Shown piece after piece: positions 24,568-42,443 of a stretch of 64,000 nt of DNA. The notes beneath the pieces were generated by a model that saw only the letters and a program-made list of their open reading frames with translations, was not told the origin of the DNA and did not search any database. This DNA comes from Pseudidiomarina sediminum DSM 21906 (lineage in GTDB: Bacteria; Pseudomonadota; Gammaproteobacteria; Enterobacterales; Alteromonadaceae). The translations under genes were made by a program, and so were the position numbers. Position 1 is the stretch's first letter. Each line of letters starts with the position of its first letter. The stretch spans positions 297,107 to 361,106 of the forward strand of contig NZ_AUHL01000006.1 of NCBI RefSeq assembly GCF_000423165.1. Direction: 5' to 3'.

Positions 24568-25212
24568 TTGATCTACATCGCTCATAGCTTTGCGCTGCCC
24601 TCGTTAGTGCCTGCCTTGTCGGCAGCGCTACTCCCAAGTGAGCAGCTTCAGGCCGAAAGTTATCAAAGTCCACAGCGTGCGTTACAGTATTTGGCGGGGC
24701 GCGGACTGTTACGCTGGTTGGTGTGTCAAACCCAAGCCGTTGCGGCGGAGCAGGTTGTGATCACACGGGCAGAGAATGGTGCACCGCTATTGACGATCAA
24801 AGGCGAGCCTTGGTCTTGCTCCATTAGTCACAAGTCGGGTGCAGTGATGGTGGCCTATACTCGCCGAGGAACCTTGGGCATTGATATCGAAGAAATGCGC
24901 TTACGAAAACGTCATGAAGAGCTTATCGATGCGTTTGCTGAAGGTTTTATGCGCGGTGTTTCGGTGGCTGACCGCGCGCAGTTTTATCAGCGTTGGACGC
25001 TCGCCGAAGCAGTGACTAAAGCGCGTCAAGGTAAGCTGCTGGCAACCTTACGAGAGGCGCCGGAACAGTACTTAGCGCAGGCGAGGTTTGTCGATGAGGC
25101 GCAGCATATGTTGTGTATTTATGCGGCGAAGAGCGTCGGTGACGGCCGCAGCCAGTGGTGGCAAGTGACCGTCACGGATACACAGCAGTTATTTATCAGC
25201 GAAGTGCGCTAG
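24568..25212 (+). CDS. 4'-phosphopantetheinyl transferase of the aryl polyene cluster
   Basis: A 214-aa Sfp/AcpT-type enzyme that would load the phosphopantetheine arm from CoA on the cluster's two acyl carrier proteins. Metal-binding residues are Asp106 and Glu108 in GIDIEEM, with Trp143, Glu147 and Lys151 in RWTLAEAVTKARQGK. The start is a rare TTG at 24568, set by the site ACGGAGAG; no ATG gives the family's N-terminus. It is the only plus-strand gene of the cluster, and its 3' end overlaps the convergent gene by 24 bases. Confidence 0.85.
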   Translation: MIYIAHSFALPSLVPALSAALLPSEQLQAESYQSPQRALQYLAGRGLLRWLVCQTQAVAAEQVVITRAENGAPLLTIKGEPWSCSISHKSGAVMVAYTRRGTLGIDIEEMRLRKRHEELIDAFAEGFMRGVSVADRAQFYQRWTLAEAVTKARQGKLLATLREAPEQYLAQARFVDEAQHMLCIYAAKSVGDGRSQWWQVTVTDTQQLFISEVR

Positions 25213-25626
25213 GTCAGCTTTTAACGCCGCCCCGGCAATAAAGGTGCCGGCACCGCATTGATATTCGCTGTCACTGGCAAATTCGTTGTGTTTATAGTTC
25301 GAACGGATATTCACAACCGCATCGTAGCCTTGTTTTTGGGCGGCGTCTTGCAGCACTTTCAATGCCGATAACATAACCCAGCGACAGGCTTCTTCATCGG
25401 ACTTGTTGAAGGCGTTGGTTTTACGACTGGTGGTCACTTCTTTTGAGCGCTCGACTTCCGGGTGCGACTGGCCCGCAAAGTAAATAGGGACATCGAGCAA
25501 GACACTTTTGGCATCTGCGGAGTCAAGTAATTCTTGCAGTGGCAGGGTCAGTACGTCATCGCGAGCCTGCGCCGCGCTTGCGAATAATGTCAGTGCGAGA
25601 ACTGCAACGAATGCTTTAAATTTCAT
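25189..25626 (-). CDS. aryl polyene cluster exported protein of unknown function
   Basis: A 145-aa protein with a clear signal peptide (MKFKAFVAVLALTLFASAAQA, given here as residues 1-21), so the mature form is periplasmic. The mature part has two cysteines, in EEACRWVML near 85 and SEYQCGAGTFIAGAAL near 123, which could form a disulfide. Similar small proteins at the end of aryl polyene clusters are often named excinuclease ABC subunit A, which the sequence does not support: there is no Walker motif. It starts 25 bases after the terminal ketosynthase gene and has a good RBS (AAGGAAA). The role is unknown. Confidence 0.8.
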   Translation of the reverse strand: MKFKAFVAVLALTLFASAAQARDDVLTLPLQELLDSADAKSVLLDVPIYFAGQSHPEVERSKEVTTSRKTNAFNKSDEEACRWVMLSALKVLQDAAQKQGYDAVVNIRSNYKHNEFASDSEYQCGAGTFIAGAALKADLAHFADK

Positions 25627-25650
25627 GTGTATTTCCTTATAGCTAGGGGG

Positions 25651-26880
25651 TTAGTTCCAACGTTTAAAAATAAGCGAGGTATTGATACCACCAAACGCAA
25701 AGTTATTGCTCATGATGAGATCGGTTTGTAGATGTTTTGGCGTCTCGACAATATAGTCAAGGGCACCACACTCAGGGTCGATGTCGGTTAAGTTGAGGGT
25801 CGGGGCAAACCACCCCTCGTTCATCATTTCGATACTGGCCCACGCTTCGATGGCACCACAGGCACCCAAGGTATGGCCGAGATAGCTTTTCAGGGAGCTG
25901 ATTGGCATGCGCTCTCCAAACACGCTGGCAGTGGCTTGTGATTCTGCGATATCGCCACGCTCCGTGGCAGTGCCGTGCGCATTGACATAACCAATTTGTG
26001 CTGGTTCAAGTTGCGCATCGGCGAGCGCTTGGCGAATGGCGATTTCCATTGTTGCCGCCGTCGGCTGGGTCACGTGCGCGCCATCAGTGTTAGTGCCAAA
26101 GCCGACCAACTCTGCGTAAATGGTTGCGCCACGAGCTTTCGCGTGCTCAAGCTCTTCTAAAATGAAGGTGCCGGCGCCTTCACCGATGACCAAACCATCG
26201 CGCTGGCGATCAAAAGGTCGCGGAGTTTGTTTGGGTTGGTCGTTGGTGGTGCTGGTAGCGTACAAAGTATCAAAAACCACTGCTTCAGAAGGGCATAGGG
26301 CTTCGGCACCACCGGCCACCATCAGTTGTTGTTGACCGTACTTAATCGCTTCATAGGCATAGCCGATAGCTTGTGAAGCAGAGGTGCAGGCCGAACTGGT
26401 GGTGTACATACGGCCTTTCAGACCGAAGTAAACGCCTACGTTCACCGCGGTCGTATGCGCCATACTTTTGATGTAAGTGGTGGCATTGATGCCGGTCATA
26501 TCGTGCTTGGCGAGCATGTTGCCAAACACAATCATTTCCTCAGTAGAACCTGTGGATGAACCATAGGCGACACCACACCGACCGTCGCTTAGGCGCGGGT
26601 CATCAAGTAACCCGGCATCGATGAGAGCTACCTCAGTGGCACGCGTTGCCATCATACTGACTTGGCTCATCGAGCGTACGTCTTTGCGTGAATAATGGCT
26701 AGGGCGCTTAAAGGCGGGCTGTATCGGTGCTGCTAAACGGGTGTTTAACCCAGCAAAGGCATCCCATTCCGGCATGTGGACAACGGCATTTTCACCCTTG
26801 AGCAGGCCGTCTCGAAACGTCTGCCATGTATCGCCAAGAGCTGTGATAGCGCCCATTCCTGTTACGACCACACGTTTCAT
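25651..26880 (-). CDS. apeR: beta-ketoacyl-ACP synthase (ApeR type)
   Basis: A 409-aa FabF-like ketosynthase. The active-site triad is complete: Cys165 in SSACTSAS, His302 in NAHGTATERGD and His336 in YLGHTLGACG. In aryl polyene systems ApeR is a stand-alone ketosynthase thought to start chains, while ApeO with ApeC elongates them. It is the last of the O-P-Q-R block, in the same order as in E. coli. Its start codon shares a base with the stop of the ketoreductase gene (TAATG). Confidence 0.92.
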   Translation of the reverse strand: MKRVVVTGMGAITALGDTWQTFRDGLLKGENAVVHMPEWDAFAGLNTRLAAPIQPAFKRPSHYSRKDVRSMSQVSMMATRATEVALIDAGLLDDPRLSDGRCGVAYGSSTGSTEEMIVFGNMLAKHDMTGINATTYIKSMAHTTAVNVGVYFGLKGRMYTTSSACTSASQAIGYAYEAIKYGQQQLMVAGGAEALCPSEAVVFDTLYATSTTNDQPKQTPRPFDRQRDGLVIGEGAGTFILEELEHAKARGATIYAELVGFGTNTDGAHVTQPTAATMEIAIRQALADAQLEPAQIGYVNAHGTATERGDIAESQATASVFGERMPISSLKSYLGHTLGACGAIEAWASIEMMNEGWFAPTLNLTDIDPECGALDYIVETPKHLQTDLIMSNNFAFGGINTSLIFKRWN

Positions 26881-27608
26881 TAGACCAATCCACCATTTAC
26901 CGAAAAGACTTGGCGGGTAATGTACGCCGCTGAATCTTGAAACAGATAGCCAACCAGGCCTGCGACTTCTTCAGGCTTACCTGCCCGTTGCATTGGGATC
27001 ATCGACAGAATATGGTCCTGATGCTCAAGAGCTTCAGTCATGTCCGTTTCGATTAATCCTGGTGCGACACAGTTGACCGTAATCTTGCGTTTGGCAAGCT
27101 CCAAGGCGAGTGCTTTGGTCGCGCCAATAAGCCCTGCTTTTGAGGCGCTATAGTTAACTTGACCGCGGTTGCCAGCAATGCCTGACACTGAAGCTATGGT
27201 GACAATACGGCCACCTTTGCGCAGGCGAATCATTGGCATAACCAATGGCCATAGCACATTATAAAAGCCGTCGAGGTTGGTATGAATCACAGCGTCCCAG
27301 TCACTTTCAGTCAGTGCTGGGAACGCGCCATCACGCGTAATACCGGCATTACAAACCGCTCCGTAATACGCGCCATGGGCTTCAATGTCGGCTTCAATGG
27401 CGTGTTGCGCAGCGGCCCGATCGGCGACATCAAATTGCAGTAAACTAGCCTGCTGACCCAAAGCTTCGATGCTTTGACAGACAGCTTGGGCGGCAGCTTT
27501 ATCACTACGACAATGAACGGCAATGTCGAAGCCTTGCTGGGCAAGTTGTAAGGCGATCGCTTTCCCGATGCCTTTGCCTGAGCCTGTGACGAGCACTCGT
27601 TTATTCAT
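26880..27608 (-). CDS. apeQ: 3-ketoacyl-ACP reductase (ApeQ type)
   Basis: A 242-aa short-chain dehydrogenase of the FabG type that reduces the 3-keto group on each polyene extension cycle using NADPH. The cofactor motif GSGKGIG (9-15), Asn111, the serine in ASVSG (140-142), Tyr153 and Lys157 (YSASK) form the complete catalytic set. It overlaps the upstream dehydratase gene by 8 bases. Confidence 0.93.
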   Translation of the reverse strand: MNKRVLVTGSGKGIGKAIALQLAQQGFDIAVHCRSDKAAAQAVCQSIEALGQQASLLQFDVADRAAAQHAIEADIEAHGAYYGAVCNAGITRDGAFPALTESDWDAVIHTNLDGFYNVLWPLVMPMIRLRKGGRIVTIASVSGIAGNRGQVNYSASKAGLIGATKALALELAKRKITVNCVAPGLIETDMTEALEHQDHILSMIPMQRAGKPEEVAGLVGYLFQDSAAYITRQVFSVNGGLV

Positions 27609-28053
27609 AGGTATCCTTTATAAATGCGGCCTCATCGGGCGGTTGATAAACATTCAACTTAGCTTTTGCAATCACGGTGTCGGCGTGCTGTATTTCACAT
27701 TCAAAGACGCTAAGCCCCGAGCTCTCGGCATGGATCTCATGGACGTTGATAACGTACGTTTCGCCCAGGGCGAAATGGCTGACCTGACAGCGATAATTAC
27801 GCGATCCTAGCAAAAAGCCAATCTTAATGTCTTGTCCGGCATCGCGATGCCGGTACCCTGCGGCGGCGGCGATGGTTTGCGCCATCAGCTCAATACCAAC
27901 ATGCGCAGGTAGACCCTTGAGTTCATCCCGATAGAAAAGATTGTCTTTGGTGATTGTGGCAGCGCAGGTCGCGCCTTCCTGATCACCTTTAAGAAATTGA
28001 TCAATTAAACGCATTGGCGGCTGGTGTTTTATCAGTTCAGCTAATGCTGGCAT
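27601..28053 (-). CDS. apeP: 3-hydroxyacyl-ACP dehydratase (ApeP type)
   Basis: A 150-aa hot-dog fold protein. The likely catalytic His lies in LPAHVGIELMAQTIAAAAG (near 49-67), on the central helix, a pattern typical of the ApeP/FabZ-like dehydratases of aryl polyene clusters. It would remove water from the 3-hydroxyacyl-ACP to give the conjugated double bond. The gene overlaps the preceding ketosynthase gene by 17 bases. The second dehydratase of the cluster, at 37.6 kb, is of a different subtype. Confidence 0.88.
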   Translation of the reverse strand: MPALAELIKHQPPMRLIDQFLKGDQEGATCAATITKDNLFYRDELKGLPAHVGIELMAQTIAAAAGYRHRDAGQDIKIGFLLGSRNYRCQVSHFALGETYVINVHEIHAESSGLSVFECEIQHADTVIAKAKLNVYQPPDEAAFIKDTYE

Positions 28054-29254
28054 GTGCGGTCTCCATCGCTGCGGCTAAACTAAAAATAAGCGAGACATTA
28101 TTCCCCCCAAAGGCAAAAGAGTTGCTGAGGCAGTGGCGGACAGCGACTTTGCTTGCCTTGGTTACCAGCTGCAGTTGCGGCAGCTCAGGGTCATAGACGC
28201 CGTCATAAACATGGAGCGGTAGGCGGCCGTCGTTCTGCTGCAACGCTAACCAGCACAGGGCTGCTTCGACTGCGCCTGCTGCGCCTAAGGTGTGACCGGT
28301 CAGTGCTTTGGTGGCGCTGGCCGGTGTCGTAGCAAGCCCACAGGCAGTGACTGCTTGGGCTTCCATAGCATCGTTTAATGGCGTGCCGGTGCCGTGCAAG
28401 TTCACATAGCTAATCTCGGCTGGGCTGAGCTGGGCACGGCGCAAGGCTTGCTGCATCGCATCTTGTGCACCGCGTCCTTGCGGTTCTGGTGCCGTCATAT
28501 GATAGGCATCGGAACTATGGCCAAACCCACTTAAGCTTACCTGAGGTAGTGTCGCGTCAAGCGGTTCTCGTGTGGCAATGAATAAGGCTGCAGCCTCACC
28601 TATATTGATTCCATCACGCTGTTGGCTAAAGGGGAGCGTGCGGGCTAAGGCGGTCGATTCAAGCGCATGAAAGCCGTTCAGGGTAAGCCGACATAACGAA
28701 TCAACGCCTCCGACAATCACGGCATCGACCTGTTGTGCTGCCAACAGCGCTTGGGCACTGATCAAGGCGCGCGCACTGGACGAGCAGGCGATCGAAATAC
28801 TGTAGCAAGGCCCCTGAACCCCTGTGTACTCGGCAATGAAATCGGCTGGCGCTGTCATCTCTTGCATGCTGTAGTGAAAGTTTTCGGGTAAGGCTTGCGT
28901 GGCGTCATAGTGACGGATGGCAGCTTCACCTTCACGAATTCCTGAGGTACTGGTACCAATAATGACTCCGACACGCTCCGCACCAAACTTGGCCTTGCAA
29001 CGCTCGATGCTAGGCATGAGTTGCGCCAGTGCTGCTGCTGCAAGCTGATTGTTGCGCGTCGCGTGGTGTTTGGGTAACTCTGCAAGCGCCGGTAAACAGG
29101 TATCATCGACATGACCGGCGATAAGGTTTGGGCTGTCAGCGACACTTAAATCACAGGTGTGCATACCAGGGCTTTCACCGTTGCAGGCACGTTGCCACAC
29201 CTGTTCCCCATGGTCGCCGAGTGCACACACAATACCGAGCTGATTGAGGATCAT
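28037..29254 (-). CDS. apeO: beta-ketoacyl-ACP synthase, elongating (ApeO type)
   Basis: A 405-aa ketosynthase with an intact triad: Cys157 in SIACSSSA, His287 in NLHGTGTPLND and His321 in LTGHTLGAAG. In the E. coli pathway ApeO forms a heterodimer with the chain-length factor ApeC and builds the polyene from malonyl-ACP. A GGAGCAACC site precedes the ATG. The coding end overlaps the apeP-like start. It diverges clearly from the ApeR-type paralogue in the same cluster. Confidence 0.92.
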   Translation of the reverse strand: MILNQLGIVCALGDHGEQVWQRACNGESPGMHTCDLSVADSPNLIAGHVDDTCLPALAELPKHHATRNNQLAAAALAQLMPSIERCKAKFGAERVGVIIGTSTSGIREGEAAIRHYDATQALPENFHYSMQEMTAPADFIAEYTGVQGPCYSISIACSSSARALISAQALLAAQQVDAVIVGGVDSLCRLTLNGFHALESTALARTLPFSQQRDGINIGEAAALFIATREPLDATLPQVSLSGFGHSSDAYHMTAPEPQGRGAQDAMQQALRRAQLSPAEISYVNLHGTGTPLNDAMEAQAVTACGLATTPASATKALTGHTLGAAGAVEAALCWLALQQNDGRLPLHVYDGVYDPELPQLQLVTKASKVAVRHCLSNSFAFGGNNVSLIFSLAAAMETAHASIS

Positions 29255-29847
29255 GGTTGCTCCTTAGGGTCGGTTACGGTGCTGAGCGTTTCACGAGTGA
29301 TCAGGTGCAGTTCGAGGCGATAGCCTAATGCGAGATGCTCAATTTGACTGTGTTGGCCGTCGTGGGTGAGGCGCCACAAAGGAGTGCCCTCCGCATCGAG
29401 TAGCGTACGTCCGCTTGCGGTCTCAATGAGCTTGGCATCAGCAAGCTGGGGTTGTAACGCTGCGATAGGCCACGAGGCCAGCTGTAAGTTGGCGAGCACT
29501 TGCTGCATCAAGCGGGGATCGTCAAAGGGCGGGAGACCTGAGCTTTGTAGAGCACCGTCGTGTTGTATGCGTGCTCGCCAAAGTTCTTGCCCCAGGGGGC
29601 TAAGACCGACCACGGTAATACCTTGGCGCTCGCGAAGTGACGAGACCTGCATGCTTTGACTGGGCTGTTCGGGATGAAACCAGGTTAACGCCACTAACTC
29701 TTGTTGTGGGGTGCCCTGCCAAGAGGTCAGCAATTGCAGCTTGGCTGCACCTCCCAAGGGAACGTGCAGGTGCGCAGGAGTAGCCAGCATTTGACAGCCG
29801 GATAGTGCGAGCAGGGCTAAAAAACTTAGTACGTATCGGTTTGGCAT
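29251..29847 (-). CDS. DUF3261 lipoprotein of the aryl polyene cluster (ApeN position)
   Basis: A 198-aa predicted outer-membrane lipoprotein: the signal peptide ends with the lipobox LSGC (Cys18). The remainder is soluble, beta-rich and matches DUF3261, a family found mainly in aryl polyene clusters between the exporter and the ketosynthase. It probably takes part in delivering or anchoring the polyene lipid in the outer membrane together with the LolA-like and MMPL proteins. It overlaps the FAD-enzyme gene by 22 bases and apeO by 4. Confidence 0.82.
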   Translation of the reverse strand: MPNRYVLSFLALLALSGCQMLATPAHLHVPLGGAAKLQLLTSWQGTPQQELVALTWFHPEQPSQSMQVSSLRERQGITVVGLSPLGQELWRARIQHDGALQSSGLPPFDDPRLMQQVLANLQLASWPIAALQPQLADAKLIETASGRTLLDAEGTPLWRLTHDGQHSQIEHLALGYRLELHLITRETLSTVTDPKEQP

Positions 29848-31085
29848 AATTCAGAAACGACGCGCAGTCGACGCTCACTCTCTTTTACAAACGGGTTGCT
29901 TGTGTCCCATGCGTAGCCAGCAAGAATAGAGCAAATCATCGCTTTTATTTGTTCCTGTTGCTGACGGTAAAAAATAACATCTTGAAACGTGCAATTATAC
30001 CAGCCTTTAACAAAAGTGCGGAAGGTGTCGATACCTTTTCGTAGTGGCTGACTGAACTCTGTTTCCCAGTCTACCGGTTCACCCTCTAATTCGCGCAGGA
30101 CTAGCGGCACCGCCATGACCGATGACTTAAGTGCAATAGTGACACCGGAAGAAAAGACCGGATCAAGGAACTCACCTGCGTTGCCCAACAACGCGAAGCG
30201 CTTTCCGTAGAGTTGTCGCACATTGGCGGAGTAACCGGTCAGCACCTGTTCTGGGCGAATGACGTCATAGTCGCCTAAGAGCTCAACCAAAAAAGGTTCG
30301 TCTGCGACTTTTTGCCATAACGCCTCGGCAGGTGTTTGTGCTGGGTCGAAATACTCAGTGCCGCCAACCACGCCGAAACTGGCAGTGTTGTCGGCAAATG
30401 GAATGAGCCAAAACCACAGTTCAGGCTGCTTTGGGTGAACTGTGATCAAAATCTTATTCGGGTCGAATGCAGGGTGCGCAAGCTTACTACGGACATGACA
30501 AAACGCCGCTTGGCGGACGGGGAAGTCCGACGGGTACTCAAGCTCTAGCAGGCGCGGCAACACCCGTCCAAAACCACTGCCGTCGAGCAAAAAGCGTCCA
30601 CAAATACGCAGCGTCGTTTGCTGCTCTAAGACGGTACAGCTTAAGGCGACGCCTTCCGGTGCGTCTAAATCGACCGCATCCACTTGGATGCCGTGTTTGA
30701 CCTCTGCGCCATAAGCCGCAGCTTCATTGATCAGGAGATTATCAAAATGTTCACGTTTGATTTGATAGGTCGTACCGGGCCCAGGCGATGACTTCTTTGT
30801 AAAATCAAAATGGGTTTTGTCGCCGTCGCGATAGAAGGCTGCACCGTTTTTAAACTGAAAGCTCAAGGCTTCAGCTTCGCGTTCTACAGCAGCTAGCAAG
30901 CCTGCTTCCGCCAAATAGCTCATACATTGCGGCAACAGACTTTCGCCAATAGAAAAGCGCGGAAAGTGCTGCCGTTCAAGTACCAGCACCCGTTGCCCTG
31001 CTTGCGCAAGCATGGCTGCTGCGGCGGCGCCCGATGGACCAGCGCCGATAATGATCACATCGTAAAGAGAATGGTTGAACTGCAC
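29826..31085 (-). CDS. FAD-dependent oxidoreductase with flavin halogenase signatures
   Basis: A 419-aa flavoprotein of the tryptophan/phenol halogenase superfamily. It has the FAD motif GAGPSG (14-19), the lysine at position 79 in FKNGAAF where halogenases keep their catalytic Lys, the WFWLIP form of the WxWxIP motif at 224-229, and FLDPVFSSG in the second half, as in pyrrole and phenol halogenases. It lies between the exporter and DUF3261 genes. The start is GTG, sharing a base with the exporter stop, with AAGGA eight bases before. It may halogenate the aryl head group, as in the brominated xanthomonadins, or be a hydroxylase/reductase with a conserved fold. No flavin reductase is nearby. 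Confidence 0.85.
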   Translation of the reverse strand: MQFNHSLYDVIIIGAGPSGAAAAAMLAQAGQRVLVLERQHFPRFSIGESLLPQCMSYLAEAGLLAAVEREAEALSFQFKNGAAFYRDGDKTHFDFTKKSSPGPGTTYQIKREHFDNLLINEAAAYGAEVKHGIQVDAVDLDAPEGVALSCTVLEQQTTLRICGRFLLDGSGFGRVLPRLLELEYPSDFPVRQAAFCHVRSKLAHPAFDPNKILITVHPKQPELWFWLIPFADNTASFGVVGGTEYFDPAQTPAEALWQKVADEPFLVELLGDYDVIRPEQVLTGYSANVRQLYGKRFALLGNAGEFLDPVFSSGVTIALKSSVMAVPLVLRELEGEPVDWETEFSQPLRKGIDTFRTFVKGWYNCTFQDVIFYRQQQEQIKAMICSILAGYAWDTSNPFVKESERRLRVVSELCQTDTY

Positions 31086-34324: not shown

Positions 34325-35862
34325 TCGTCCTTATAGAGGGTCCAGCGTTGTGCTCGGACTTGCTCAAGCCAATAACGAAGCTCTGCTTCTAGAGGGCGAT
34401 CTTCTTGCACCAAGGTGAAGTCTGCGCTGATATCTGCAAGCATCGCATCAATCGCCGCGCTACACTGTGTTTGCCCAGCCTGTTGTCGGCGCAGCTGTAC
34501 CCCTTGTACGGTGGCCAATAAGGTTGCCACCATGACCTGCTCGGTCAGCTCCAGCACGCGTAAACAATCACGTGCAGCAATGGTGCCCATACTTACTTTA
34601 TCTTGGTTGTGGCACTCGGTCGAACGTGAAAAGACACTGGCTGGCATGGTTAGCTTTAAGGCTTCTGCAGTCCAAGCTGAGCAGCCAATCTGCACGGCTT
34701 TAAATCCATGGTTGATGGGCTGGCGCGCCCCCTTTGCAGCGGACAAGTTGGCAGGCAGGCCGTTGTTCATCTTCGTGTCCATTAACAAAGCCATCTGGCG
34801 ATCATGTAAGTCCGCCAAGTTAGCCACCGCTGTTTTCATGCTGTCCATAACCATGGCGATATGGCCACCGTAAAAGTGCCCTCCGTGCAGGACGTGTTCA
34901 CCTTCACCGTCAATGATTGGATTGTCATTGGCACTGTTGAGTTCATTTTCGATGGTTGTTTGGAACCATGGTAGCGCATCACGCAGCACGCCAATAACAT
35001 GTGGTGCGCAGCGAATGGAGTAGCGATCTTGCAAACGATCGGAATTACGAGGGTGCTCAAAATGATTCAGGTCGTGCTGAATCCAACTGGCAATGCGTTG
35101 CTGACCTTGGTGTGGCTTCACCGCAAAAAGCTTATCATCAAAGTGATTACTGTTGCCTTGCAGCGCAATGCTGGCAAGTGCCGTGATGCGGGCTGATAAA
35201 CGCGAGAGGTACTCGGCACGATGCCACGCCTGACAGGCTAAAGCGGTCATCACCGCAGTACCATTCATGATCGCTAAGCCTTCTTTGGGACGTAAGCTCA
35301 ATGGCGCTAAGCCAAGCTCTTCGAATACTTCAGCGCTTGCGCGCGTTTGGCCTTGGTAGCGCACCTCGCGCTCGCCGATAAGTGCACCGGCCACATAAGA
35401 TAGTGGCGTCAGATCGCCGCTGGCGCCGACGCTACCCTCTTCAGGGATCAATGGCAGAATATTGTGATTCAGCATCACCACGAGGCGCTCCATCAAGGCC
35501 CAGCTAACGCCTGAGTAGCCTTGCGCGAGTGAGCATAGGCGGGTCGCTAAGATTGCGCGCACACTGTCGTCGCTAAAATGGTTGCCTAAGCCGCAGCCGT
35601 GGAACCGCGTTAGATGAATTGGCAGTTCGTGCACGAGCTCGAGTGGAACCTTGACCGTACAGCTGTCGCCATAGCCTGTGGTGACCCCGTAAATCACCCC
35701 ATCTTCACGCAGTAGCTTATCTAAAAAAGCGGTGCCTGCATTGATCCGCTGACGAAATCCGGTGTCATCGCTCAAGCCCGCTGTGCACTGCTGTTGAGTG
35801 AGCCGAATAATGTCGTCAATGGTGATGCGTTTGCCGCCAAACGCTAGGGTTGCTACGGACAT
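34321..35862 (-). CDS. MIO-type aromatic amino acid ammonia-lyase
   Basis: A 513-aa member of the HAL/PAL/TAL family. The self-forming MIO cofactor triad is Ala147-Ser148-Gly149 within SVGASGDLTPLSY, and the catalytic Tyr58 is in YGVTTGYG. The two residues that set substrate choice align to Phe87-His88 (RFHGCG), unlike the His-Leu of a tyrosine lyase such as that of Rhodobacter, Phe-Leu of plant-type PAL or Ser-His of histidine lyases. Inside an aryl polyene cluster the likely product is 4-coumarate or cinnamate, to be activated by the adenylating ligase. A histidine role is unlikely, as no hut gene is nearby. Confidence 0.87.
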   Translation of the reverse strand: MSVATLAFGGKRITIDDIIRLTQQQCTAGLSDDTGFRQRINAGTAFLDKLLREDGVIYGVTTGYGDSCTVKVPLELVHELPIHLTRFHGCGLGNHFSDDSVRAILATRLCSLAQGYSGVSWALMERLVVMLNHNILPLIPEEGSVGASGDLTPLSYVAGALIGEREVRYQGQTRASAEVFEELGLAPLSLRPKEGLAIMNGTAVMTALACQAWHRAEYLSRLSARITALASIALQGNSNHFDDKLFAVKPHQGQQRIASWIQHDLNHFEHPRNSDRLQDRYSIRCAPHVIGVLRDALPWFQTTIENELNSANDNPIIDGEGEHVLHGGHFYGGHIAMVMDSMKTAVANLADLHDRQMALLMDTKMNNGLPANLSAAKGARQPINHGFKAVQIGCSAWTAEALKLTMPASVFSRSTECHNQDKVSMGTIAARDCLRVLELTEQVMVATLLATVQGVQLRRQQAGQTQCSAAIDAMLADISADFTLVQEDRPLEAELRYWLEQVRAQRWTLYKDE

Positions 35863-35865
35863 CGG

Positions 35866-36810
35866 TTACAGATCCTTGTCGTGTTGTTGCCAAAAAGAAT
35901 AAAAGTTGAACCATTGGTACGGGTAACGTTGACAGAGCATTTCCAGCTTCGCAACATAGCGTGAGAGTACCTCTTGAATCGCTTGCTGGCGCTCACGTCG
36001 CGGTAGTTTGAGTTGCGTTGTGAGCAAATCTAAATGTAAATCGAAGCCAGCGTCTTCAGTGCGACGCAAACAGAATAGCAAATAAACCGGGCATTCAAGC
36101 ACGCTAGCAAGTACCCATGGACCTATGGCAAAAGGTGCTGGAGCACCAAGAAAGTCGTGCTGGACACTTTGACTGGCGTCTGTCACCGAGACGCGGTCGC
36201 CAACAATCACCACAAATTCACCTTGATCCACCCGTTCACGCAAGCGAATGGCCAGCGCCATATCGATAGAGGTGACTTGAATGATATCAATGGCGACACT
36301 CGGATTGAGTTCTTGTAGCGCCCGGTTAAAGGCTTGTGCATGTTCGGTAAATACCAAGACATTCATGCGCTTGCTGTAGTTGCTACTGGCGATAGCGCGG
36401 GCGACTTCAAGGTTGCCAAGGTGGCTACCGATGAGGATGCCGCCCTCACTCCGTTGTTCAAGATCTTGAAAGAGGGTATTGCCACAGTTTTGTACATCAG
36501 TGCGTTGAATGCGACCAATCCAAGCATCGGTTTTTGCCAGCGAGGCCAGGCCAAATTGCCAAAAATGGCGCAAACTGTTCCGCCAGTTCGGAGCTCTGGC
36601 AAAGGGCGAGGCTGGCCCGGAAAACTGATGCAAGCGCTGCAAGTAGCTTAATGAAGCGCGACGCGCATCACCACCGGTCAAAAAGAAGTATAAAATGACC
36701 GGCGCGAGTACCAGTCGCATCAACCAATGACCGCCATACTTATAGGCGCGCAAGATAAAGACGATGCCCCAGTAACTACCGCGTTCTTCTTTTTTCGCCC
36801 AATGGCTCAT
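35866..36810 (-). CDS. lipid A-type acyltransferase of the aryl polyene cluster
   Basis: A 314-aa inner-membrane-associated acyltransferase of the LpxL/COG4261 superfamily with an HX4E catalytic motif in GSHLGNLE near residue 140. It probably transfers the aryl polyene acyl chain or a fatty acid onto the glycosylated lipid. The start at 36810 forms an ATGA overlap with the upstream glycosyltransferase stop and has GAGG six bases before. In E. coli ApeJ I recall glycosyltransferase and acyltransferase modules in one protein; here they are two coupled genes. Confidence 0.86.
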   Translation of the reverse strand: MSHWAKKEERGSYWGIVFILRAYKYGGHWLMRLVLAPVILYFFLTGGDARRASLSYLQRLHQFSGPASPFARAPNWRNSLRHFWQFGLASLAKTDAWIGRIQRTDVQNCGNTLFQDLEQRSEGGILIGSHLGNLEVARAIASSNYSKRMNVLVFTEHAQAFNRALQELNPSVAIDIIQVTSIDMALAIRLRERVDQGEFVVIVGDRVSVTDASQSVQHDFLGAPAPFAIGPWVLASVLECPVYLLFCLRRTEDAGFDLHLDLLTTQLKLPRRERQQAIQEVLSRYVAKLEMLCQRYPYQWFNFYSFWQQHDKDL

Positions 36811-37556
36811 GCTGTGCCTCGCCGGCACTTACGTGCCAACAGTTTCGGTAACCGCAGCAACATGCCAAAAAACAACCGTGTATGCATTTTTGATATGCGC
36901 CAGTTGTCCGCTAAGCCCTGAAAGTGAGAGCGCCCACCCTCTGGGTAAATGACCTTGGTCGGAATAAAGTACATAGCGATACCACGCCAATACATGCGCA
37001 CCATAATCTCGATATCAAAGTCCATCCGCGCGCCGGGACAATGTGCTTCAATGGTGGCTAGTGTGGCCGCAACCGGATACACCCGGAAGCCACACATAGT
37101 GTCTTTCACTTGCAGCGACAAAGTTTCAATGTGTACCCAAAAATGCGTGATTTGTCGGCCGATTTTACGTGCTGTTGGAATTGAATCGTCGTATTGCGGT
37201 GCGCCACTGATAAGGGCCTCAGGATGCTTTGCCGCGCAGTCCCAGAAACGCGGAATGTCGTTGGCATCGTGTTGGCCGTCAGCATCAATTTGCAGCGCAT
37301 GCGTTAATCCACGCTGGTGCGCTTGCCGCAATCCTTCCATCACAGCCCCACCTTTCCCCGTATTCACCGGCAAATGATGCACCGCCACCCACTGTGGGTA
37401 CTGTTGTTGCAAGGCAGCTAATGCCTCTTTCGTCGCCGCATCAGAGCCATCATCAATAATGATAATCGGAAGCTGGTAGGGCAGTAACTGCGTCACTGTC
37501 GCGGCGATAGTGTCGTGATGATTGTAAATTGGGATGACAAAGCAACGCTGCAACAT
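36807..37556 (-). CDS. family 2 glycosyltransferase of the aryl polyene cluster
   Basis: A 249-aa GT-A glycosyltransferase. It has the nucleotide-binding IIDDGSDA (near 38-45), NTGKGGAVMEGL (near 65-76) and the DXD metal site in QIDADGQHD (near 88-96), as in dolichol-phosphate-type GT2 enzymes. It may build the sugar or polyprenyl-phosphate part of the lipid that carries the polyene. The start ATG at 37556 lies two bases after the dehydratase stop; a longer frame uses a TTG in the upstream gene. Confidence 0.88.
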   Translation of the reverse strand: MLQRCFVIPIYNHHDTIAATVTQLLPYQLPIIIIDDGSDAATKEALAALQQQYPQWVAVHHLPVNTGKGGAVMEGLRQAHQRGLTHALQIDADGQHDANDIPRFWDCAAKHPEALISGAPQYDDSIPTARKIGRQITHFWVHIETLSLQVKDTMCGFRVYPVAATLATIEAHCPGARMDFDIEIMVRMYWRGIAMYFIPTKVIYPEGGRSHFQGLADNWRISKMHTRLFFGMLLRLPKLLARKCRRGTA

Positions 37557-37557
37557 A

Positions 37558-37923
37558 TTAGCTCGGCTCAGCAAAAATCAGTCGTCCAGATGACATCGCA
37601 CGCTCACCACACTGATAGCGGAAGACCACACAGTTATCACGTTTGAACTCTAGGCGCAGGGTCACGTCAGCGCGTGGCAATAGCATGTCATTGAATTTCA
37701 GTACCTCAATGGTGCTGACTGAACGCGGTGTGTGCCAATGATCTGCAGCAATTTGGGCCGCCCAATCAAGTTGCGTGACACCCGGCAGTAAAGGCGCCTC
37801 GGGAAAGTGTCCTTGGAAATACACTGAATCAGGCGCCAAAGTGAAGTCAATCTGCAGTAGCGGACGCCCTTCAGGCGTGGTGTCCTGACGCAGCTGCGTG
37901 AATTCGGGAAGCTGTGGTTTCAT
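37558..37923 (-). CDS. apeI: 3-hydroxyacyl-ACP dehydratase (ApeI type)
   Basis: A 121-aa FabZ/FabA-like hot-dog dehydratase. The catalytic His lies in YFQGHFPEAPLLPGVTQLDW (near 35-54), the standard FabZ signature with Asp replacing the usual Glu at QLDW. In E. coli, ApeI and ApeP work together as the dehydratase pair of the pathway. It overlaps the ligase gene by four bases. Confidence 0.9.
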   Translation of the reverse strand: MKPQLPEFTQLRQDTTPEGRPLLQIDFTLAPDSVYFQGHFPEAPLLPGVTQLDWAAQIAADHWHTPRSVSTIEVLKFNDMLLPRADVTLRLEFKRDNCVVFRYQCGERAMSSGRLIFAEPS

Positions 37924-39224
37924 AGTGACACATTCTCAATAAACAATTGTTGCAACGCGGCCTGAGTGATTTTCCCAGCCGCATTCAACGGGTAATGGCT
38001 AACGTAGCGATACTTGCGCGGTAACACAACTTTCTCGAAGCGGCGTTGCAAGTGTTCACGTAGGGCTTTACGCAAGGTCAATCGGCCTTCGTGTGCCAAC
38101 ATTTGTTGGCCTTGCTCGGTAAGGACGACGACTAATCCCAGAGTGCTTTTGGGTTCGCTTAAGATGCAGCAACGTGCTTGGGCAACCCACGGGTGGGTGG
38201 CGCAAAACTGTTCAAGCTCGGTCAGTGAGACGCGCTTTTCTGCGATTTTTACAATCCTATCCATCCGCCCGAGCAATTCAAAGTGATGCGCATCAAGCTG
38301 CTGCACACGATCTTCGGTGGTAAACCAGTTCGTGTCGGGCAGATGCGGTGAGCGCACGCTGAGTCGTTGCTCGGCCGACAGTGTAATATCGACACCGGGG
38401 AACAAAGTGAAAGCGGTCGCTCGGTTGTGTCGTTGCCGCCAGGCAATGCCACCGGTTTCAGTGCTGCCATATACTTCAACGGGGGCGGCCAACTGCGCCG
38501 CGACAAAACGCTCAGGCACAGCAGCAGCTAATGGACCACCGGAGGAAAAGACATAGCGTAAACTTGCGCTTGGCTCGGCAAGTGGCGCTAAGGCTTCATA
38601 GCGTTGCAAGTGCGCTGGGCTGCTGACGAAGTAGTAGCGGCGGCCATGTTGATGAAACCCATGCCATTGCTCAAGATACTGGACGGGCGGCGAGTCAAAA
38701 CGGCGATTACAACAAATCGGCCACAACACCGTGAAGAGCAGCCCATAGATATGTTGATGGGTCACACTACTGAGTACTTCTGCGTCACCAAGGTGTGCAC
38801 CGAAGGCCTGCTCTAACGTGTGCACTTCGTGCAGCAATTGTGCGATGCTTTTGTGAATCGCTTGAGGCTGGCCACTCGAACCGGAGGTGAATAAGGTAAT
38901 ACGCGTGTCTAAGCGTCCTGTCAGTGAGGCCGCAGTTAACTGTCGTGGGTCGATGTCTGGCAGCTGTGTCGGCGCGTGGGCATCGACATGATCGGCCAAA
39001 AAACTAAGCGTTTCAGGTTGTGCATTCTGTGGCATAACGGGGGTGCGATGCTCACCAAGGAGGGCAAATAACCAAACAGCAAAAGTGTAGCGGTCTTCAT
39101 TGAATAAGAGCCAGCGCTGGCTATCGCTGGTCGCGATGATGCGCCGCGCTGCGTTACAGTGGTCGATAAACTGTTGCTGAGACAGCGAAATTTGCCAATT
39201 ATTGCTGTCGCTTTTTGACCACAC
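37920..39224 (-). CDS. apeH: aryl/acyl-ACP ligase, AMP-forming (ApeH type)
   Basis: A 434-aa member of the adenylate-forming superfamily. The P-loop FTSGSSGQPQAIHK (near 111-124), VYGSTETGG near 251 and the hinge-like LLGRMDRIVKIAEKRVS (near 313-329) are present. ApeH activates the aromatic starter acid and loads it onto an acyl carrier protein. In this cluster the acid could come from the ammonia-lyase. The start is GTG at 39224 with GGAG eight bases before, and the gene overlaps the upstream membrane-protein gene by 26 bases. Confidence 0.9.
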   Translation of the reverse strand: MWSKSDSNNWQISLSQQQFIDHCNAARRIIATSDSQRWLLFNEDRYTFAVWLFALLGEHRTPVMPQNAQPETLSFLADHVDAHAPTQLPDIDPRQLTAASLTGRLDTRITLFTSGSSGQPQAIHKSIAQLLHEVHTLEQAFGAHLGDAEVLSSVTHQHIYGLLFTVLWPICCNRRFDSPPVQYLEQWHGFHQHGRRYYFVSSPAHLQRYEALAPLAEPSASLRYVFSSGGPLAAAVPERFVAAQLAAPVEVYGSTETGGIAWRQRHNRATAFTLFPGVDITLSAEQRLSVRSPHLPDTNWFTTEDRVQQLDAHHFELLGRMDRIVKIAEKRVSLTELEQFCATHPWVAQARCCILSEPKSTLGLVVVLTEQGQQMLAHEGRLTLRKALREHLQRRFEKVVLPRKYRYVSHYPLNAAGKITQAALQQLFIENVSL

Positions 39225-39750
39225 GTCGTACTCCTAATTCGATCAACATGAGTGCCCCCATGGCAATGTAGGCAATCACACCATTGTAGAGGGTCCAAAG
39301 TTTGAGATTTGCCAGCAGCGCGGTCCATAAAGCGAGCGCGCCATTGACACAAAAAAACAGGCACCACACTAGCGTGACTCGTTCGGTATAACGAATCGCC
39401 GCTGGCGTTAGTTCACCTTCCATGGCCTGTGCCAAGCGCGTGATAATGGCTGGTTTTTGTAGTAAGGAGCCGGCAAACACCAGCAAGAAACCTAAGTTCA
39501 TCCAAACGGGATAAAATAATGCCCCGGCGATGGGATCAACCCACCAAGCGCCAAGCACGACCAGCGCGACGGCGGCAACCAAAATATACGTGCGCGGTTG
39601 GCGCCAGTCGCTGACCACGAGTTGCGGTAACACCAATAAACACAAAATCCACCAGAGTTTGTCCGTGTGCCCTGCATGCACTAATCCCGCTACCCAAAGC
39701 GGGTAAGCGATCAGCGCAATGGCAATCAGGACACGGACGGGCTGCATCAT
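39199..39750 (-). CDS. polytopic membrane protein of the aryl polyene cluster (ApeG position)
   Basis: A 183-aa hydrophobic protein with about five to six predicted membrane segments and a basic C-terminus (RRVVKKRQQ). It belongs to the COG4648-type family that accompanies the acyl carrier proteins in aryl polyene clusters. No catalytic motif is visible. It could anchor the biosynthetic enzymes to the membrane or help transfer the product; this is speculation from context. Confidence 0.82.
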   Translation of the reverse strand: MMQPVRVLIAIALIAYPLWVAGLVHAGHTDKLWWILCLLVLPQLVVSDWRQPRTYILVAAVALVVLGAWWVDPIAGALFYPVWMNLGFLLVFAGSLLQKPAIITRLAQAMEGELTPAAIRYTERVTLVWCLFFCVNGALALWTALLANLKLWTLYNGVIAYIAMGALMLIELGVRRVVKKRQQ

Positions 39751-39756
39751 GGTCGC

Positions 39757-40014
39757 TTAACTTTGCATGAGCGCATAAACTTCGTTGACAACATCTTCGA
39801 CGGTGCGCACCGCTTTAAATGCGTCTGGACTGATCTTTTTACCCGTGATTTCACGTAGTTTTACCACTAAATCTACCGCATCAATGCTATCAAGATCTAA
39901 ATCTTGGTAGAGGTTCGCGTCAGGGCGAATGGCATCACTTTCCAGCTCAAAGTCTTCAACTAGGATCTGTTGCAACTGCTGGTAGACATCTTCTTTCGTT
40001 TGCATGGTACTCAT
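39757..40014 (-). CDS. apeF: acyl carrier protein (ApeF type)
   Basis: An 85-aa acyl carrier protein. The phosphopantetheine-accepting serine is Ser43 in DLDLDSIDAVDL, followed by an acidic helix. The start at 40014 (MSTMQTK) shares a base with the stop of the other carrier; MQTK at 40005 is the alternative. It probably carries the elongating polyene; which carrier serves starter loading cannot be told from sequence. Confidence 0.93.
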   Translation of the reverse strand: MSTMQTKEDVYQQLQQILVEDFELESDAIRPDANLYQDLDLDSIDAVDLVVKLREITGKKISPDAFKAVRTVEDVVNEVYALMQS

Positions 40015-40280
40015 TATCCTTTCTGGCTGGTGATGAAGTCAGCCAGAGTATTTACACTGTAGAAATGTTGCTTGGTGTCTGTTGCATTCGCATCAAGCTT
40101 TACATCGAAAGCTTTTTTGATCGCTAGGCCCAACTCAAGCGCGTCAATTGAATCAAGATCAAGGCCATCGTTCTCGTCGCTAAAGAGCGGAGCATCATCG
40201 CGAATGTCAGCAACGCCGACATCTTCGAGATCCAAGGCTTCAATGATCAGCGTTTTCAGTTCTTGTTTTAAAGTTTCCAT
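40014..40280 (-). CDS. apeE: acyl carrier protein (ApeE type)
   Basis: An 88-aa acyl carrier protein, with the attachment site Ser44 in GLDLDSIDALEL. The start ATG at 40280 is fixed by GGAA five bases upstream and by family length. A longer open frame to 40439 overlaps the acyltransferase gene and lacks carrier character. The gene start overlaps the end of the upstream acyltransferase gene by 41 bases. The two carriers differ in their helix 2-3 region, suggesting different partners. Confidence 0.93.
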   Translation of the reverse strand: METLKQELKTLIIEALDLEDVGVADIRDDAPLFSDENDGLDLDSIDALELGLAIKKAFDVKLDANATDTKQHFYSVNTLADFITSQKG

Positions 40281-41058
40281 TACTTTCCAATACCTTGTTG
40301 TAATAGCTTTCAAGATCGCGCGTGAGCTTGCGGGCTGCGATACTTGCTGTGTCGTCTTGGTAAGGGGCAATTTCAACCAAACGCAAATAGCCAATGGTAA
40401 GGGTTGGCTTTTGTTTGGGAGCACAATACCAAGGCTCATTTTTTATTAGCGTAACAGGGTCACACGCAACCCGTAGCGCAACTAAATCACTGTTTGTTCG
40501 CAGGGCCAGATTGGCAGGCCCGCGCTGGAACTTAAAAGCATGCCCAGGCTCAGTACGGGTACCTTCAGGAAAAATAATGAGATTATTTCCTTGCGCTAGT
40601 GAGCGCTGACAATCAGTGATGAGTCCGTCGGGGTCGCCGTTGCTAATGTAACCGGACGATTTTATCACACCTCGCATGAAAGGGTTATGCCACAAGTGTG
40701 CCTTGACGACGCAGTCAGCGTTGGGCACAAAAGAAATAAGGGCAACGATATCAATCAAACTCGGGTGGTTGGCGATGATGACCTGACCACGACAGTTTTG
40801 CAGCTGTTGGCGAGCTGGAAAATCAAAGTTAAACACGCCAGTAGCGCGCATTAAGCCAATGAAAAAGCGAAAGGTCTTTTGTACCATTTGCTTTGCCATT
40901 TGTTGCTGGCGTGCAGGATCACCGTAGGCACGTAACTTGAGCAGGGGTAATGCCGTCAGCGACATGACGAGACCACCGAGGCCAAACACAACGAAGCAAA
41001 GCCCCGTCGCAAAACGCCGCCAAGTTTGGTTCAACCAACGCCAACTAGCCCCCAACAT
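40240..41058 (-). CDS. 1-acylglycerol-3-phosphate-type acyltransferase (ApeD position)
   Basis: A 272-aa PlsC-like acyltransferase with an N-terminal membrane helix, the HX4D motif in ANHPSLIDIV (near 88-97) and FPEGTRTEPG (near 159-168). It probably acylates the lipid part of the aryl polyene glycolipid. The start ATG at 41058 overlaps the chain-length factor end by 14 bases; a GTG 24 bases upstream is an alternative. Confidence 0.88.
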   Translation of the reverse strand: MLGASWRWLNQTWRRFATGLCFVVFGLGGLVMSLTALPLLKLRAYGDPARQQQMAKQMVQKTFRFFIGLMRATGVFNFDFPARQQLQNCRGQVIIANHPSLIDIVALISFVPNADCVVKAHLWHNPFMRGVIKSSGYISNGDPDGLITDCQRSLAQGNNLIIFPEGTRTEPGHAFKFQRGPANLALRTNSDLVALRVACDPVTLIKNEPWYCAPKQKPTLTIGYLRLVEIAPYQDDTASIAARKLTRDLESYYNKVLESNGNFKTRTENADH

Positions 41059-41719
41059 GCCACTGCCAACGTTGGTTATCACGGCAAAGCTCGACCTGGG
41101 TCGCTTGCAGTTGGGTGATGCTGCGTTGTAAGTGCTCGGCAGCGCTGATCAGTGAAGTATTTGCAGTTGCTGCTTGATGCGTTTCAAAGCGCACTGGACA
41201 GCCTTCTTCACGACTTAACAGGGTGACAAAGGTAAAGCTGCGCTCAGGTAAAGCTGCGTGTTCAAGATAGGGCTCAGGTGGCGGCTCATCAGTATAAATG
41301 AAGAGGACTTCAGGCGCCTGCTGTAATTGTAAGCTCGCCTCTAGCCACCCCATCGCAAACGTACGTTCACCGGCAGCTATGGTGGTCATGGCTGCCGTAT
41401 TCCCGAGTAAAATGCTGAGTTGCCCGAGCACCGCATTATTCACCGACAAACTAAATTGGGTGGGGGACAAAGGCTGGTCCGCTGCAAGTTCATGCAATAG
41501 CTTAATAGTGCGGTGCAAATCGCCATGTTGAGAGGCTAAGACCACCGGGATCTTTGCCGCCTGCGGGTGGTGTTCAAGCAACTGCAAAACGCCCCGCATG
41601 AGCAGTTTGGCGTACGGGCTTAAGCGCCGCCGTGTCGATGCGGGGATCGATTGCAGCGGGTCTTGCGCGTAGGCATCGTCATTTTGGGCCATAACGGCGG
41701 CTTTGCTGAACATCAACAT
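41045..41719 (-). CDS. apeC: ketosynthase-like chain-length factor (ApeC type)
   Basis: A half-size ketosynthase homologue of about 224 aa. It lacks the active-site cysteine and ends after the region equivalent to the N-terminal half. Segments such as VVLASQHGDL, LSVNNAVLG and ERTFAMGWLEA (near 60-130) mirror the family called beta-ketoacyl synthase-like in aryl polyene clusters. In E. coli ApeC is the chain-length partner of ApeO. It is the first gene behind the strong promoter at 41.77 kb. The start is uncertain: ATG at 41719 fits the promoter best but has a poor RBS. Confidence 0.82.
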   Translation of the reverse strand: MLMFSKAAVMAQNDDAYAQDPLQSIPASTRRRLSPYAKLLMRGVLQLLEHHPQAAKIPVVLASQHGDLHRTIKLLHELAADQPLSPTQFSLSVNNAVLGQLSILLGNTAAMTTIAAGERTFAMGWLEASLQLQQAPEVLFIYTDEPPPEPYLEHAALPERSFTFVTLLSREEGCPVRFETHQAATANTSLISAAEHLQRSITQLQATQVELCRDNQRWQWHVGG

Positions 41720-41757
41720 GGGCAATGTCTTGTGTGAACGAGCTTCAAAAGAAGCGG

Positions 41758-41786
41758 ATAATACACAAATCAGTAGTTGTTTTCAA
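41758..41786 (-). promoter_or_regulatory. promoter of the aryl polyene operon
   Basis: On the minus strand, TTGAAA (41786-41781) and TATTAT (41763-41758) are spaced by exactly 17 bases, a near-consensus sigma-70 promoter. The transcript would start near 41751 and lead into the ApeC-type gene. Near the predicted start a GCTTC-TTTT-GAAGC hairpin could shape the 5' leader. Confidence 0.6.
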
Positions 41787-42439: not shown

Positions 42440-42443
42440 CGGC

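What the first reader, a model, noticed from the sequence alone, without database searches (positions are those of the whole stretch)
24568..41786. Near-complete aryl polyene operon in E. coli-like order, with two additions
Seen: some 19 genes on the minus strand, nearly all overlapping or abutting, covering CLF, two ACPs, ligase, two dehydratases, KR, two KSs, thioesterase, acyl/glycosyltransferases, LolA-like, MMPL and DUF3261. Their order matches apeC to apeR. Known: such clusters make outer-membrane pigments that protect against oxidants. The ammonia-lyase and the FAD enzyme are additions relative to the E. coli core. Inference: the product is an aryl polyene lipid with its own starter supply and a modified head group. 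No methyltransferase gene is seen in the cluster.
Basis: partly seen in the sequence, partly recalled or inferred. Interest (0 to 1): 0.7.

Follow-up and report, generated by a model that had tools for sequence, protein, structure and literature searches.

The report
Ordinary marine aryl polyene pigment operon
This is a near-complete set of genes for a yellow membrane pigment lipid (an aryl polyene) in a marine bacterium, and its two "extra" genes, which probably supply the starter from tyrosine and put a halogen on the ring, are common in related bacteria rather than unusual.

Summary
Confirmed. Nineteen closely packed minus-strand genes (25651-41725) form an aryl polyene (APE) cluster. E. 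coli apeC-apeR all have counterparts here in the same order, apeJ being split in two. apeA has no counterpart, and no relative of the methyltransferase ApeB was found in the genome. The host looks like Pseudidiomarina.

The two "additions" are not peculiar. Of 28 other family genomes with a close FAD-enzyme match, 24 were opened and 20 show the window's layout; so do 57 of 80 named loci. In the order sample, 92 of 133 ApeP-bearing genomes carry the lyase and 67 of 133 the FAD enzyme.

The lyase resembles AltA and the FAD enzyme AltN of alterochromide-type clusters; a review says AltA makes coumarate from tyrosine and altN is needed for bromination. Halogenase motifs are intact in 81 of 81 sequences.

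Best reading: a coumaroyl-started aryl polyene lipid, its phenol ring probably halogenated. No chemistry was tested. A new member of a known kind; the open point is whether this widespread enzyme halogenates aryl polyene lipids.

The parts
24568..25212 (+). 4'-phosphopantetheinyl transferase, counterpart of E. coli acpT (31% identity over 148 aa) but on the opposite strand
   Evidence: Pfam; AcpT follows apeR in E. coli; blastp
25189..25626 (-). small secreted-looking protein, family unnamed; follows apeR in many relatives
   Evidence: no Pfam/NCBIfam; same place in many relatives; signal-peptide-like N-terminus judged by eye
25651..26880 (-). ApeR-type ketosynthase, 62% to E. coli ApeR
26880..27608 (-). 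ApeQ ketoreductase (FabG2), 62%
27601..28053 (-). ApeP dehydratase
   Evidence: PF22817 over cut-off
28037..29254 (-). ApeO ketosynthase, 43%
29251..29847 (-). ApeN, DUF3261 lipoprotein-like
29826..31085 (-). FAD-dependent halogenase-family enzyme (AltN / 3nix relative)
31085..33418 (-). ApeM, MMPL/RND exporter
33345..33914 (-). ApeL, LolA-like carrier
33911..34324 (-). ApeK thioesterase, 46%
34321..35862 (-). aromatic amino acid lyase, AltA-like, most likely tyrosine ammonia-lyase
   Evidence: PF00221; scores and motifs vs AltA-like proteins and own HutH
35866..36828 (-). acyltransferase half of ApeJ (38% to E. coli ApeJ 244-550)
36807..37574 (-). GT2 half of ApeJ (56% to E. coli ApeJ 8-245)
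37558..37923 (-). ApeI dehydratase
   Evidence: PF22818 over cut-off
37920..39224 (-). ApeH acyl/aryl ligase
39199..39750 (-). ApeG membrane protein
   Evidence: 50% over 106 aa to E. coli ApeG; no Pfam
39757..40014 (-). ApeF acyl carrier protein, DSI phosphopantetheine site
40014..40280 (-). ApeE acyl carrier protein (internal ATG taken as start), DSI site
   Evidence: PP-binding match below cut-off; 52% to E. coli ApeE
40240..41082 (-). ApeD lysophospholipid-type acyltransferase
41045..41725 (-). ApeC chain length factor-like protein
   Evidence: PF13723
41758..41786 (-). possible operon promoter (TTGAAA-17-TATTAT); consensus match only, and the region has fewer matches than its shuffles

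Best explanation
An aryl polyene lipid operon. The ammonia-lyase deaminates tyrosine to 4-coumarate (inferred). ApeH loads it on an ACP; ApeR and ApeO-ApeC extend it with malonyl units; ApeQ, ApeI and ApeP make the conjugated double bonds (known for this enzyme set in Xenorhabdus and E. coli, inferred here). The FAD enzyme, with reduced flavin, oxygen and a halide, puts halogen (bromine or chlorine) on the phenol ring, perhaps while the chain is on an ACP (inferred). ApeK, ApeD and the two ApeJ halves attach the acyl chain to a lipid or sugar anchor, and ApeG/L/M/N move it to the outer membrane (proposed for E. coli); related pigments protect against oxidants (known for relatives).
For: Collinear match with E. 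coli apeC-R. Lyase: PF00221, distinct from the genome's own HutH, which exceeds the hutH cut-off (664 vs 539 bits) while the cluster lyase does not (407); shares (F/Y)HGCG and NQD with AltA-like proteins, not HutH's SHAAG and NQED. FAD enzyme: best sequence and fold match 3nix, then halogenases such as ChlB4, PltA, RadH, Mpy16, FasV, Bmp2; Lys79, WxWxIP and FxxPxxSxG in 81 of 81; 41% identical to an AltN-like protein at the end of an alterochromide-type cluster, which groups among the 41 rows of this family, apart from other halogenases, at 99/98 support. Review: altA knockout restored by coumarate; altN deletion abolishes only the brominated forms (PMC5577590, passages). The FAD gene lies beside the ring methylase ApeB, same strand, in 16 of the 34 APE genomes having both plus the lyase.
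Against: No product, expression or activity data. The genome has a UbiC-family gene, so 4-hydroxybenzoate is probably available as starter. The closest solved relative of the FAD enzyme is only labelled flavoprotein/dehydrogenase, and the fold is shared with non-halogenating monooxygenases such as kynurenine 3-monooxygenase. Family members occur away from APE genes: in 5 of 80 named loci that have full flanks, and in the order sample far from ApeP (6), on another contig (4) or without ApeP (1) out of 68. It is absent at the cut-off used from 66 of 133 ApeP genomes and from 3 of 5 genomes sampled in the genus as a close match. Two of five alterochromide-type clusters examined showed no such gene in the fetched stretches. 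Many hosts are not marine genera (names, ecology recalled), so the halide is unclear. The AltA/AltN identities here rest on gene order, not on the published sequences.
Confidence: 0.68

Rival explanations
1. Same cluster and coumarate starter, but the FAD enzyme does not halogenate: it hydroxylates or oxidises the ring or chain (for example to a catechol head group) or has lost halide chemistry.
For: Best PDB relative 3nix is named flavoprotein/dehydrogenase only; of 74 NCBIfam matches the 25 shown include reductases and monooxygenases and none reaches its cut-off, though the best is the halogenase CmlS; many hosts are soil or freshwater genera (names, ecology recalled).
Against: The halogenase motifs and the lysine are invariant in 81 of 81, and AltN-like proteins fall in the same family.
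Confidence: 0.22
2. The starter is 4-hydroxybenzoate from UbiC, as proposed for E. coli, and the lyase serves something else.
For: UbiC-family gene present; E. coli APE is predicted to start from 4-HBA (PMC8253772, passages).
Against: The lyase gene overlaps apeK and lies near ApeP on the same strand in 90 of 92 order genomes that have it, the other two having them on different contigs; AltA-like motifs.
Confidence: 0.12
3. The product is a flexirubin-like ester with a dialkylresorcinol.
For: Flexirubin synthesis also begins with a tyrosine ammonia-lyase (PMC3992019, passages); the FAD enzyme is close to a Cytophaga protein; resorcinol-APE hybrids are predicted in some Pseudoalteromonas (PMC9966250, passages).
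Against: No resorcinol-type genes among the 30 proteins scanned in and around the cluster; the lyase scores 350 against the 700-bit FlxA cut-off; the attachment and export genes match those of E. coli APE. A second KAS III elsewhere in the genome was not identified.
Confidence: 0.04
4. The cluster is intact but silent or not visibly pigmenting in this strain (not exclusive of the others).
For: A Pseudidiomarina with a predicted arylpolyene cluster was described as grey-white (PMC12893665, passages).
Against: Nineteen open frames, with the ACP serines and KS cysteines in place, shared with many relatives.
Confidence: 0.12

Closest known systems
E. coli/Xenorhabdus aryl polyene cluster (apeA-R)
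   Same: Counterparts of all of apeC-R in the same order; AcpT counterpart nearby
   Different: No counterpart of apeA or apeB in the cluster, apeJ split, lyase inserted between J and K, FAD enzyme between M and N, PPTase inverted
APE clusters of Idiomarina, Pseudoalteromonas, Shewanella, Colwellia, Acinetobacter, Pseudomonas, Duganella
   Same: Lyase and FAD enzyme at the same two places in 57 of 80 named loci (the 80 are the best of more than 590 candidates)
   Different: Mainly sequence divergence; some have the gene of 25189-25626, some do not
Alterochromide cluster (altA-altN), Pseudoalteromonas
   Same: Coumarate starter from tyrosine, aryl polyene chain, AltN-like FAD halogenase (PMC5577590 and PMC7333567, passages)
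   Different: Product is a lipopeptide from NRPSs; lyase about 43% and FAD enzyme about 41% identical
Xanthomonadin-type clusters (Xanthomonas, Azoarcus arcuflavin)
   Same: Brominated aryl polyene in Xanthomonas; halogenase gene in the cluster (PMC3691225 and PMC3949708, passages)
   Different: Starter from the XanB2-type chorismate enzyme rather than a lyase; no such gene among the 30 proteins. Their halogenase sequences were not compared
Flexirubin cluster (flx), Bacteroidota
   Same: Tyrosine ammonia-lyase start (PMC3992019, passages); FAD enzyme 40% to Cytophaga 3nix
   Different: Resorcinol ester; FlxA model not met. That 3nix lies in a flexirubin cluster is a guess from memory, not tested

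Membership tests
Aryl polyene (APE) cluster | ApeO-ApeC KS/CLF pair plus ApeR KS | tested here: met
Aryl polyene (APE) cluster | ApeI and ApeP dehydratases, ApeQ KR, two ACPs, ApeH ligase | tested here: met
   PF22817 and PF22818 over cut-off; all match E. coli counterparts
Aryl polyene (APE) cluster | Attachment and export genes D, G, J, K, L, M, N | tested here: met
   (weakest: N, E 8e-8; L, E 1e-9)
Aryl polyene (APE) cluster | Makes a yellow polyene | not testable with these tools
   needs culture
Tyrosine ammonia-lyase | ASG (MIO) motif and TAL/PAL-type Gln rather than HAL-type Glu | tested here: met
   motif rule from PMC3992019 (passages), where motif 1 misled for FlxA
Tyrosine ammonia-lyase | Activity on tyrosine | not testable with these tools
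   needs enzyme assay
Flavin-dependent halogenase | GxGxxG, catalytic Lys, WxWxIP, FxxPxxSxG (motifs recalled, not from a call) | tested here: met
   81 of 81 for Lys79, WxWxIP, FxxPxxSxG and the three glycines; 32 of 32 for Lys, WxWxIP and FxxPxxSxG
Flavin-dependent halogenase | Halide-dependent halogenation | not testable with these tools
   needs enzyme assay
Flexirubin cluster | FlxA-type lyase above the curated cut-off | tested here: not met
   350 bits vs 700
Flexirubin cluster | Dialkylresorcinol genes | tested here: inconclusive
   none among the 30 proteins; elsewhere only KAS III was scanned, two found, one not identified
Xanthomonadin cluster | XanB2-type chorismate enzyme in the cluster | tested here: not met
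   none among the 30 proteins; rest of genome not searched for it

The most novel reading that the evidence does not exclude
Halogenated aryl polyene lipids are common and mostly unrecognised: the AltN-type enzyme found in about half of the APE-bearing genomes of this order, and in APE clusters of Acinetobacter, Pseudomonas and several Burkholderiales, halogenates the phenol ring of the pigment, so that one of the most widespread pigment families of Gram-negative bacteria has a large halogenated branch beyond xanthomonadins.
Probability: 0.45. Interest if true: 0.5.

Novelty: new member of a known kind. Interest (0 to 1): 0.22.

Why it matters
As a cluster it is ordinary. It matters a little because it points to a simple, testable split in a very common pigment family: coumarate-started and probably halogenated aryl polyenes versus the 4-hydroxybenzoate-started, methylated E. 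coli type. Many clusters have both tailoring genes (34 of 133 genomes), so a small-genome bacterium with the FAD enzyme and no ApeB found would be a clean place to test what the FAD enzyme does.

Tried and rejected
Considered and rejected: flexirubin membership (FlxA model not met, no resorcinol-type genes in or around the cluster); xanthomonadin membership (no XanB2-type gene in or around the cluster); the lyase being the genome's HutH (a separate HutH exists); the additions being unique to this genome; FAD enzyme and methylase as alternatives (34 of 133 ApeP genomes have both).

Led nowhere: promoter and terminator scans, fewer sites than shuffles. Literature: searches were seen as listings only, and for some only the top part (25 of 183, 30 of 287, 25 of 568, 15 of 23, 15 of 168, 12 of 66). 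None of the listed papers ties this FAD enzyme to APE lipids by name, but papers opened at passages do report halogenase genes in xanthomonadin-type clusters, and one legend shows them beside the KS-CLF pair in several genomes (PMC3691225; PMC3949708). The library holds open-licence papers only.

Rows dropped or thin: one search took the 20 best of the 28 other family genomes with a close FAD match; 4 more were opened (one with the lyase but the FAD gene directly behind apeK, L053; three without the lyase, L069-L071); 4 were not opened. One search kept the best 80 of 593 confirmed candidates. The tree used 44 chosen rows, three with very long branches flagged by the program, and a midpoint root. 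Positions for searches were copied by hand. ApeE was scored with a start nine bases inside the likely ATG and a forced M.
Full report
What is there. The window lies in a 2.62 Mb genome. The best named relatives of its FAD enzyme are Pseudidiomarina homiensis and Pseudidiomarina sp. CB1 (71-72%), then Idiomarina (65-68%), so the host is most likely a Pseudidiomarina. On the minus strand from 41725 down to 25651 run 19 genes; 16 of 18 junctions overlap and the others are 3 and 6 bases apart. Pfam matches 18 of them (ApeE below its cut-off) and leaves the membrane protein unnamed, which is ApeG by comparison with E. coli. A 145-aa gene without a family (25189-25626) follows, and a plus-strand phosphopantetheinyl transferase (24568-25212) flanks it.

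Comparison with E. coli. A distant search located the ape cluster in 809 of 5,426 E. coli genomes, and its annotation was read in one strain: lipoprotein, methyltransferase, then C to R, acpT. All 16 genes C-R are matched in order by window genes; the 558-aa E. coli ApeJ corresponds to two adjacent window genes; the transferase matches AcpT; the lyase, the FAD enzyme and the 145-aa protein match nothing. ApeB was not found in the window's genome, while the same query found it in 81 of 295 genomes of the order.

How unusual are the additions? In the family, 29 of 147 genomes including the own one have a close FAD match (E 1.5e-125 or better); within the genus 2 of 5. Of the other 28, 24 were opened. 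The 20 best all carry lyase, thioesterase, exporter, FAD enzyme and synthase genes in the window's order, with small genes such as L or N, and in one locus the KR, not always detected. One has the lyase but the FAD gene directly behind apeK (L053), and three have the FAD enzyme without the lyase (L069, L070, L071). In an even sample of the order, 133 of 295 genomes have ApeP; of these 92 have the lyase and 67 the FAD enzyme: 64 both, 28 lyase only, 3 FAD only, 38 neither (cut-offs 1e-130, 1e-70 and 1e-6). The lyase is near ApeP, same strand, in 90 of 92. The FAD gene is within 20 kb of ApeP in 57 of 68, farther in 6, on another contig in 4, and without ApeP in 1. In 16 genomes it sits next to ApeB on the same strand. 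Of the 80 named loci kept from the FAD alignment search, 73 show at least four of eight APE genes, 61 the lyase and 57 the exact order; 5 with full flanks show at most one APE-like gene; hosts include Pseudoalteromonas, Shewanella, Colwellia, Acinetobacter, Pseudomonas and Duganella.

The lyase. It belongs to PF00221 but is not the genome's HutH, which scores 664 bits against the hutH cut-off of 539, while the cluster lyase scores 407. In Pseudoalteromonas, 60 of 108 genomes have 62 lyase places at E <= 1e-85, and 20 of these are a 42-45% form. Five of the 20 were opened. Their order, lyase, ACP, ligase, KS, DH, KR, then large proteins, fits the published alt order as far as the fetched stretches show (G467's lyase lies outside them; no DH hit in G454); in one genome a 2,619-aa protein was checked and is an NRPS, with a thioesterase before the large genes. 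In three of five an AltN-like 412-aa FAD protein follows the last large gene; in the other two none was seen in about 40 kb. The cluster lyase and the AltA-like proteins share (F/Y)HGCG and NQD, where HutH has SHAAG and NQED. A review states that altA deletion is restored by coumarate and altN deletion removes only the brominated forms (PMC5577590, passages); a second paper lists altN as a flavin-dependent halogenase next to the NRPS genes (PMC7333567, passages).

The FAD enzyme. Sequence search: 3nix (322 bits), then ChlB4, 8zop (FasV), PltA and others. A model (pLDDT 91.6) matches 3nix at TM about 0.90 and ChlB4, PltA, RadH, Mpy16, FasV and Bmp2 at 0.79-0.86 for their best chains; the fold is widespread (1,376 matches at E <= 0.001, kynurenine 3-monooxygenase among the weaker ones). 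The lysine of FQFKNGA, WxWxIP and FxxPxxSxG are intact in 81 of 81 sequences, including those outside APE loci; that these motifs mark halogenases is recalled. In a tree of 44 rows, three AltN-like proteins and 3nix group together (100/100) inside a 41-row set (99/98) made of APE-cluster enzymes and a few copies away from APE genes; ChlB4, 8zop and one distant relative lie outside, with long branches and a midpoint root.

Reading. Known elsewhere: the KS/CLF, KR, DH and ACP set makes aryl polyenes, and D, J, K with G, L, M, N are proposed to attach and export them (PMC8253772, passages; PMC8358021, passages). Shown here: the gene set, its order and its relatives. Inferred: tyrosine to coumarate; ring halogenation; lipid attachment. 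Xanthomonadins are brominated aryl polyenes with a halogenase gene in the cluster, and halogenase genes lie near the conserved KS-CLF pair in several other genomes (PMC3691225, passages); Azoarcus has one too (PMC3949708, passages); flexirubin starts from coumarate made by a tyrosine ammonia-lyase (PMC3992019, passages). So each step has a precedent, and the lyase is the commoner state in this order's sample (92 of 133), the FAD enzyme about half (67 of 133).

Against. Nothing was measured. A UbiC-family gene is present. A Pseudidiomarina with a predicted arylpolyene cluster was reported grey-white (PMC12893665, passages). The FAD family also occurs outside APE loci. A paper on Pseudoalteromonas APE clusters does not use the words halogenase or ammonia (PMC9966250, term search and passages).

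Verdict. A true and ordinary aryl polyene cluster; new member of a known kind. The one point worth a bench test is whether the FAD enzyme halogenates the head group.

Noticed in passing
L047 8076-9281, L048 8197-9411, L049 8425-9639: FAD enzyme with all halogenase motifs lying far from the APE cluster of the same genome, with no other window-gene match in 17 kb.
   Followed up: partly
L052 7344-8558 and 15 similar genomes: FAD gene directly beside the ring methylase apeB on the same strand; in L052 both are divergent from the APE operon: looks like a separate head-group tailoring operon.
   Followed up: partly
L137, L138, L140, L142, L150: Paraburkholderia, Cupriavidus and Neisseria loci with the FAD enzyme but at most one APE-like gene within about 10 kb on either side.
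   Followed up: no
L080: Colwellia maritima locus with two hits each for the lyase, thioesterase and exporter, either a duplication or frame breaks.
   Followed up: no
window 25189-25626: 145-aa protein with no Pfam or NCBIfam match, near the apeR end of the cluster in many relatives; no sequence match to E. coli ApeA.
   Followed up: partly
window 41804-42526: START-domain protein gene just upstream of the operon on the same strand; a START relative lies near the apeR end of the cluster in L029-L031.
   Followed up: no
L167-L170 (G483, G454): Alterochromide-type clusters in which no FAD halogenase was seen in the fetched 40 kb; their products may be unbrominated.
   Followed up: no
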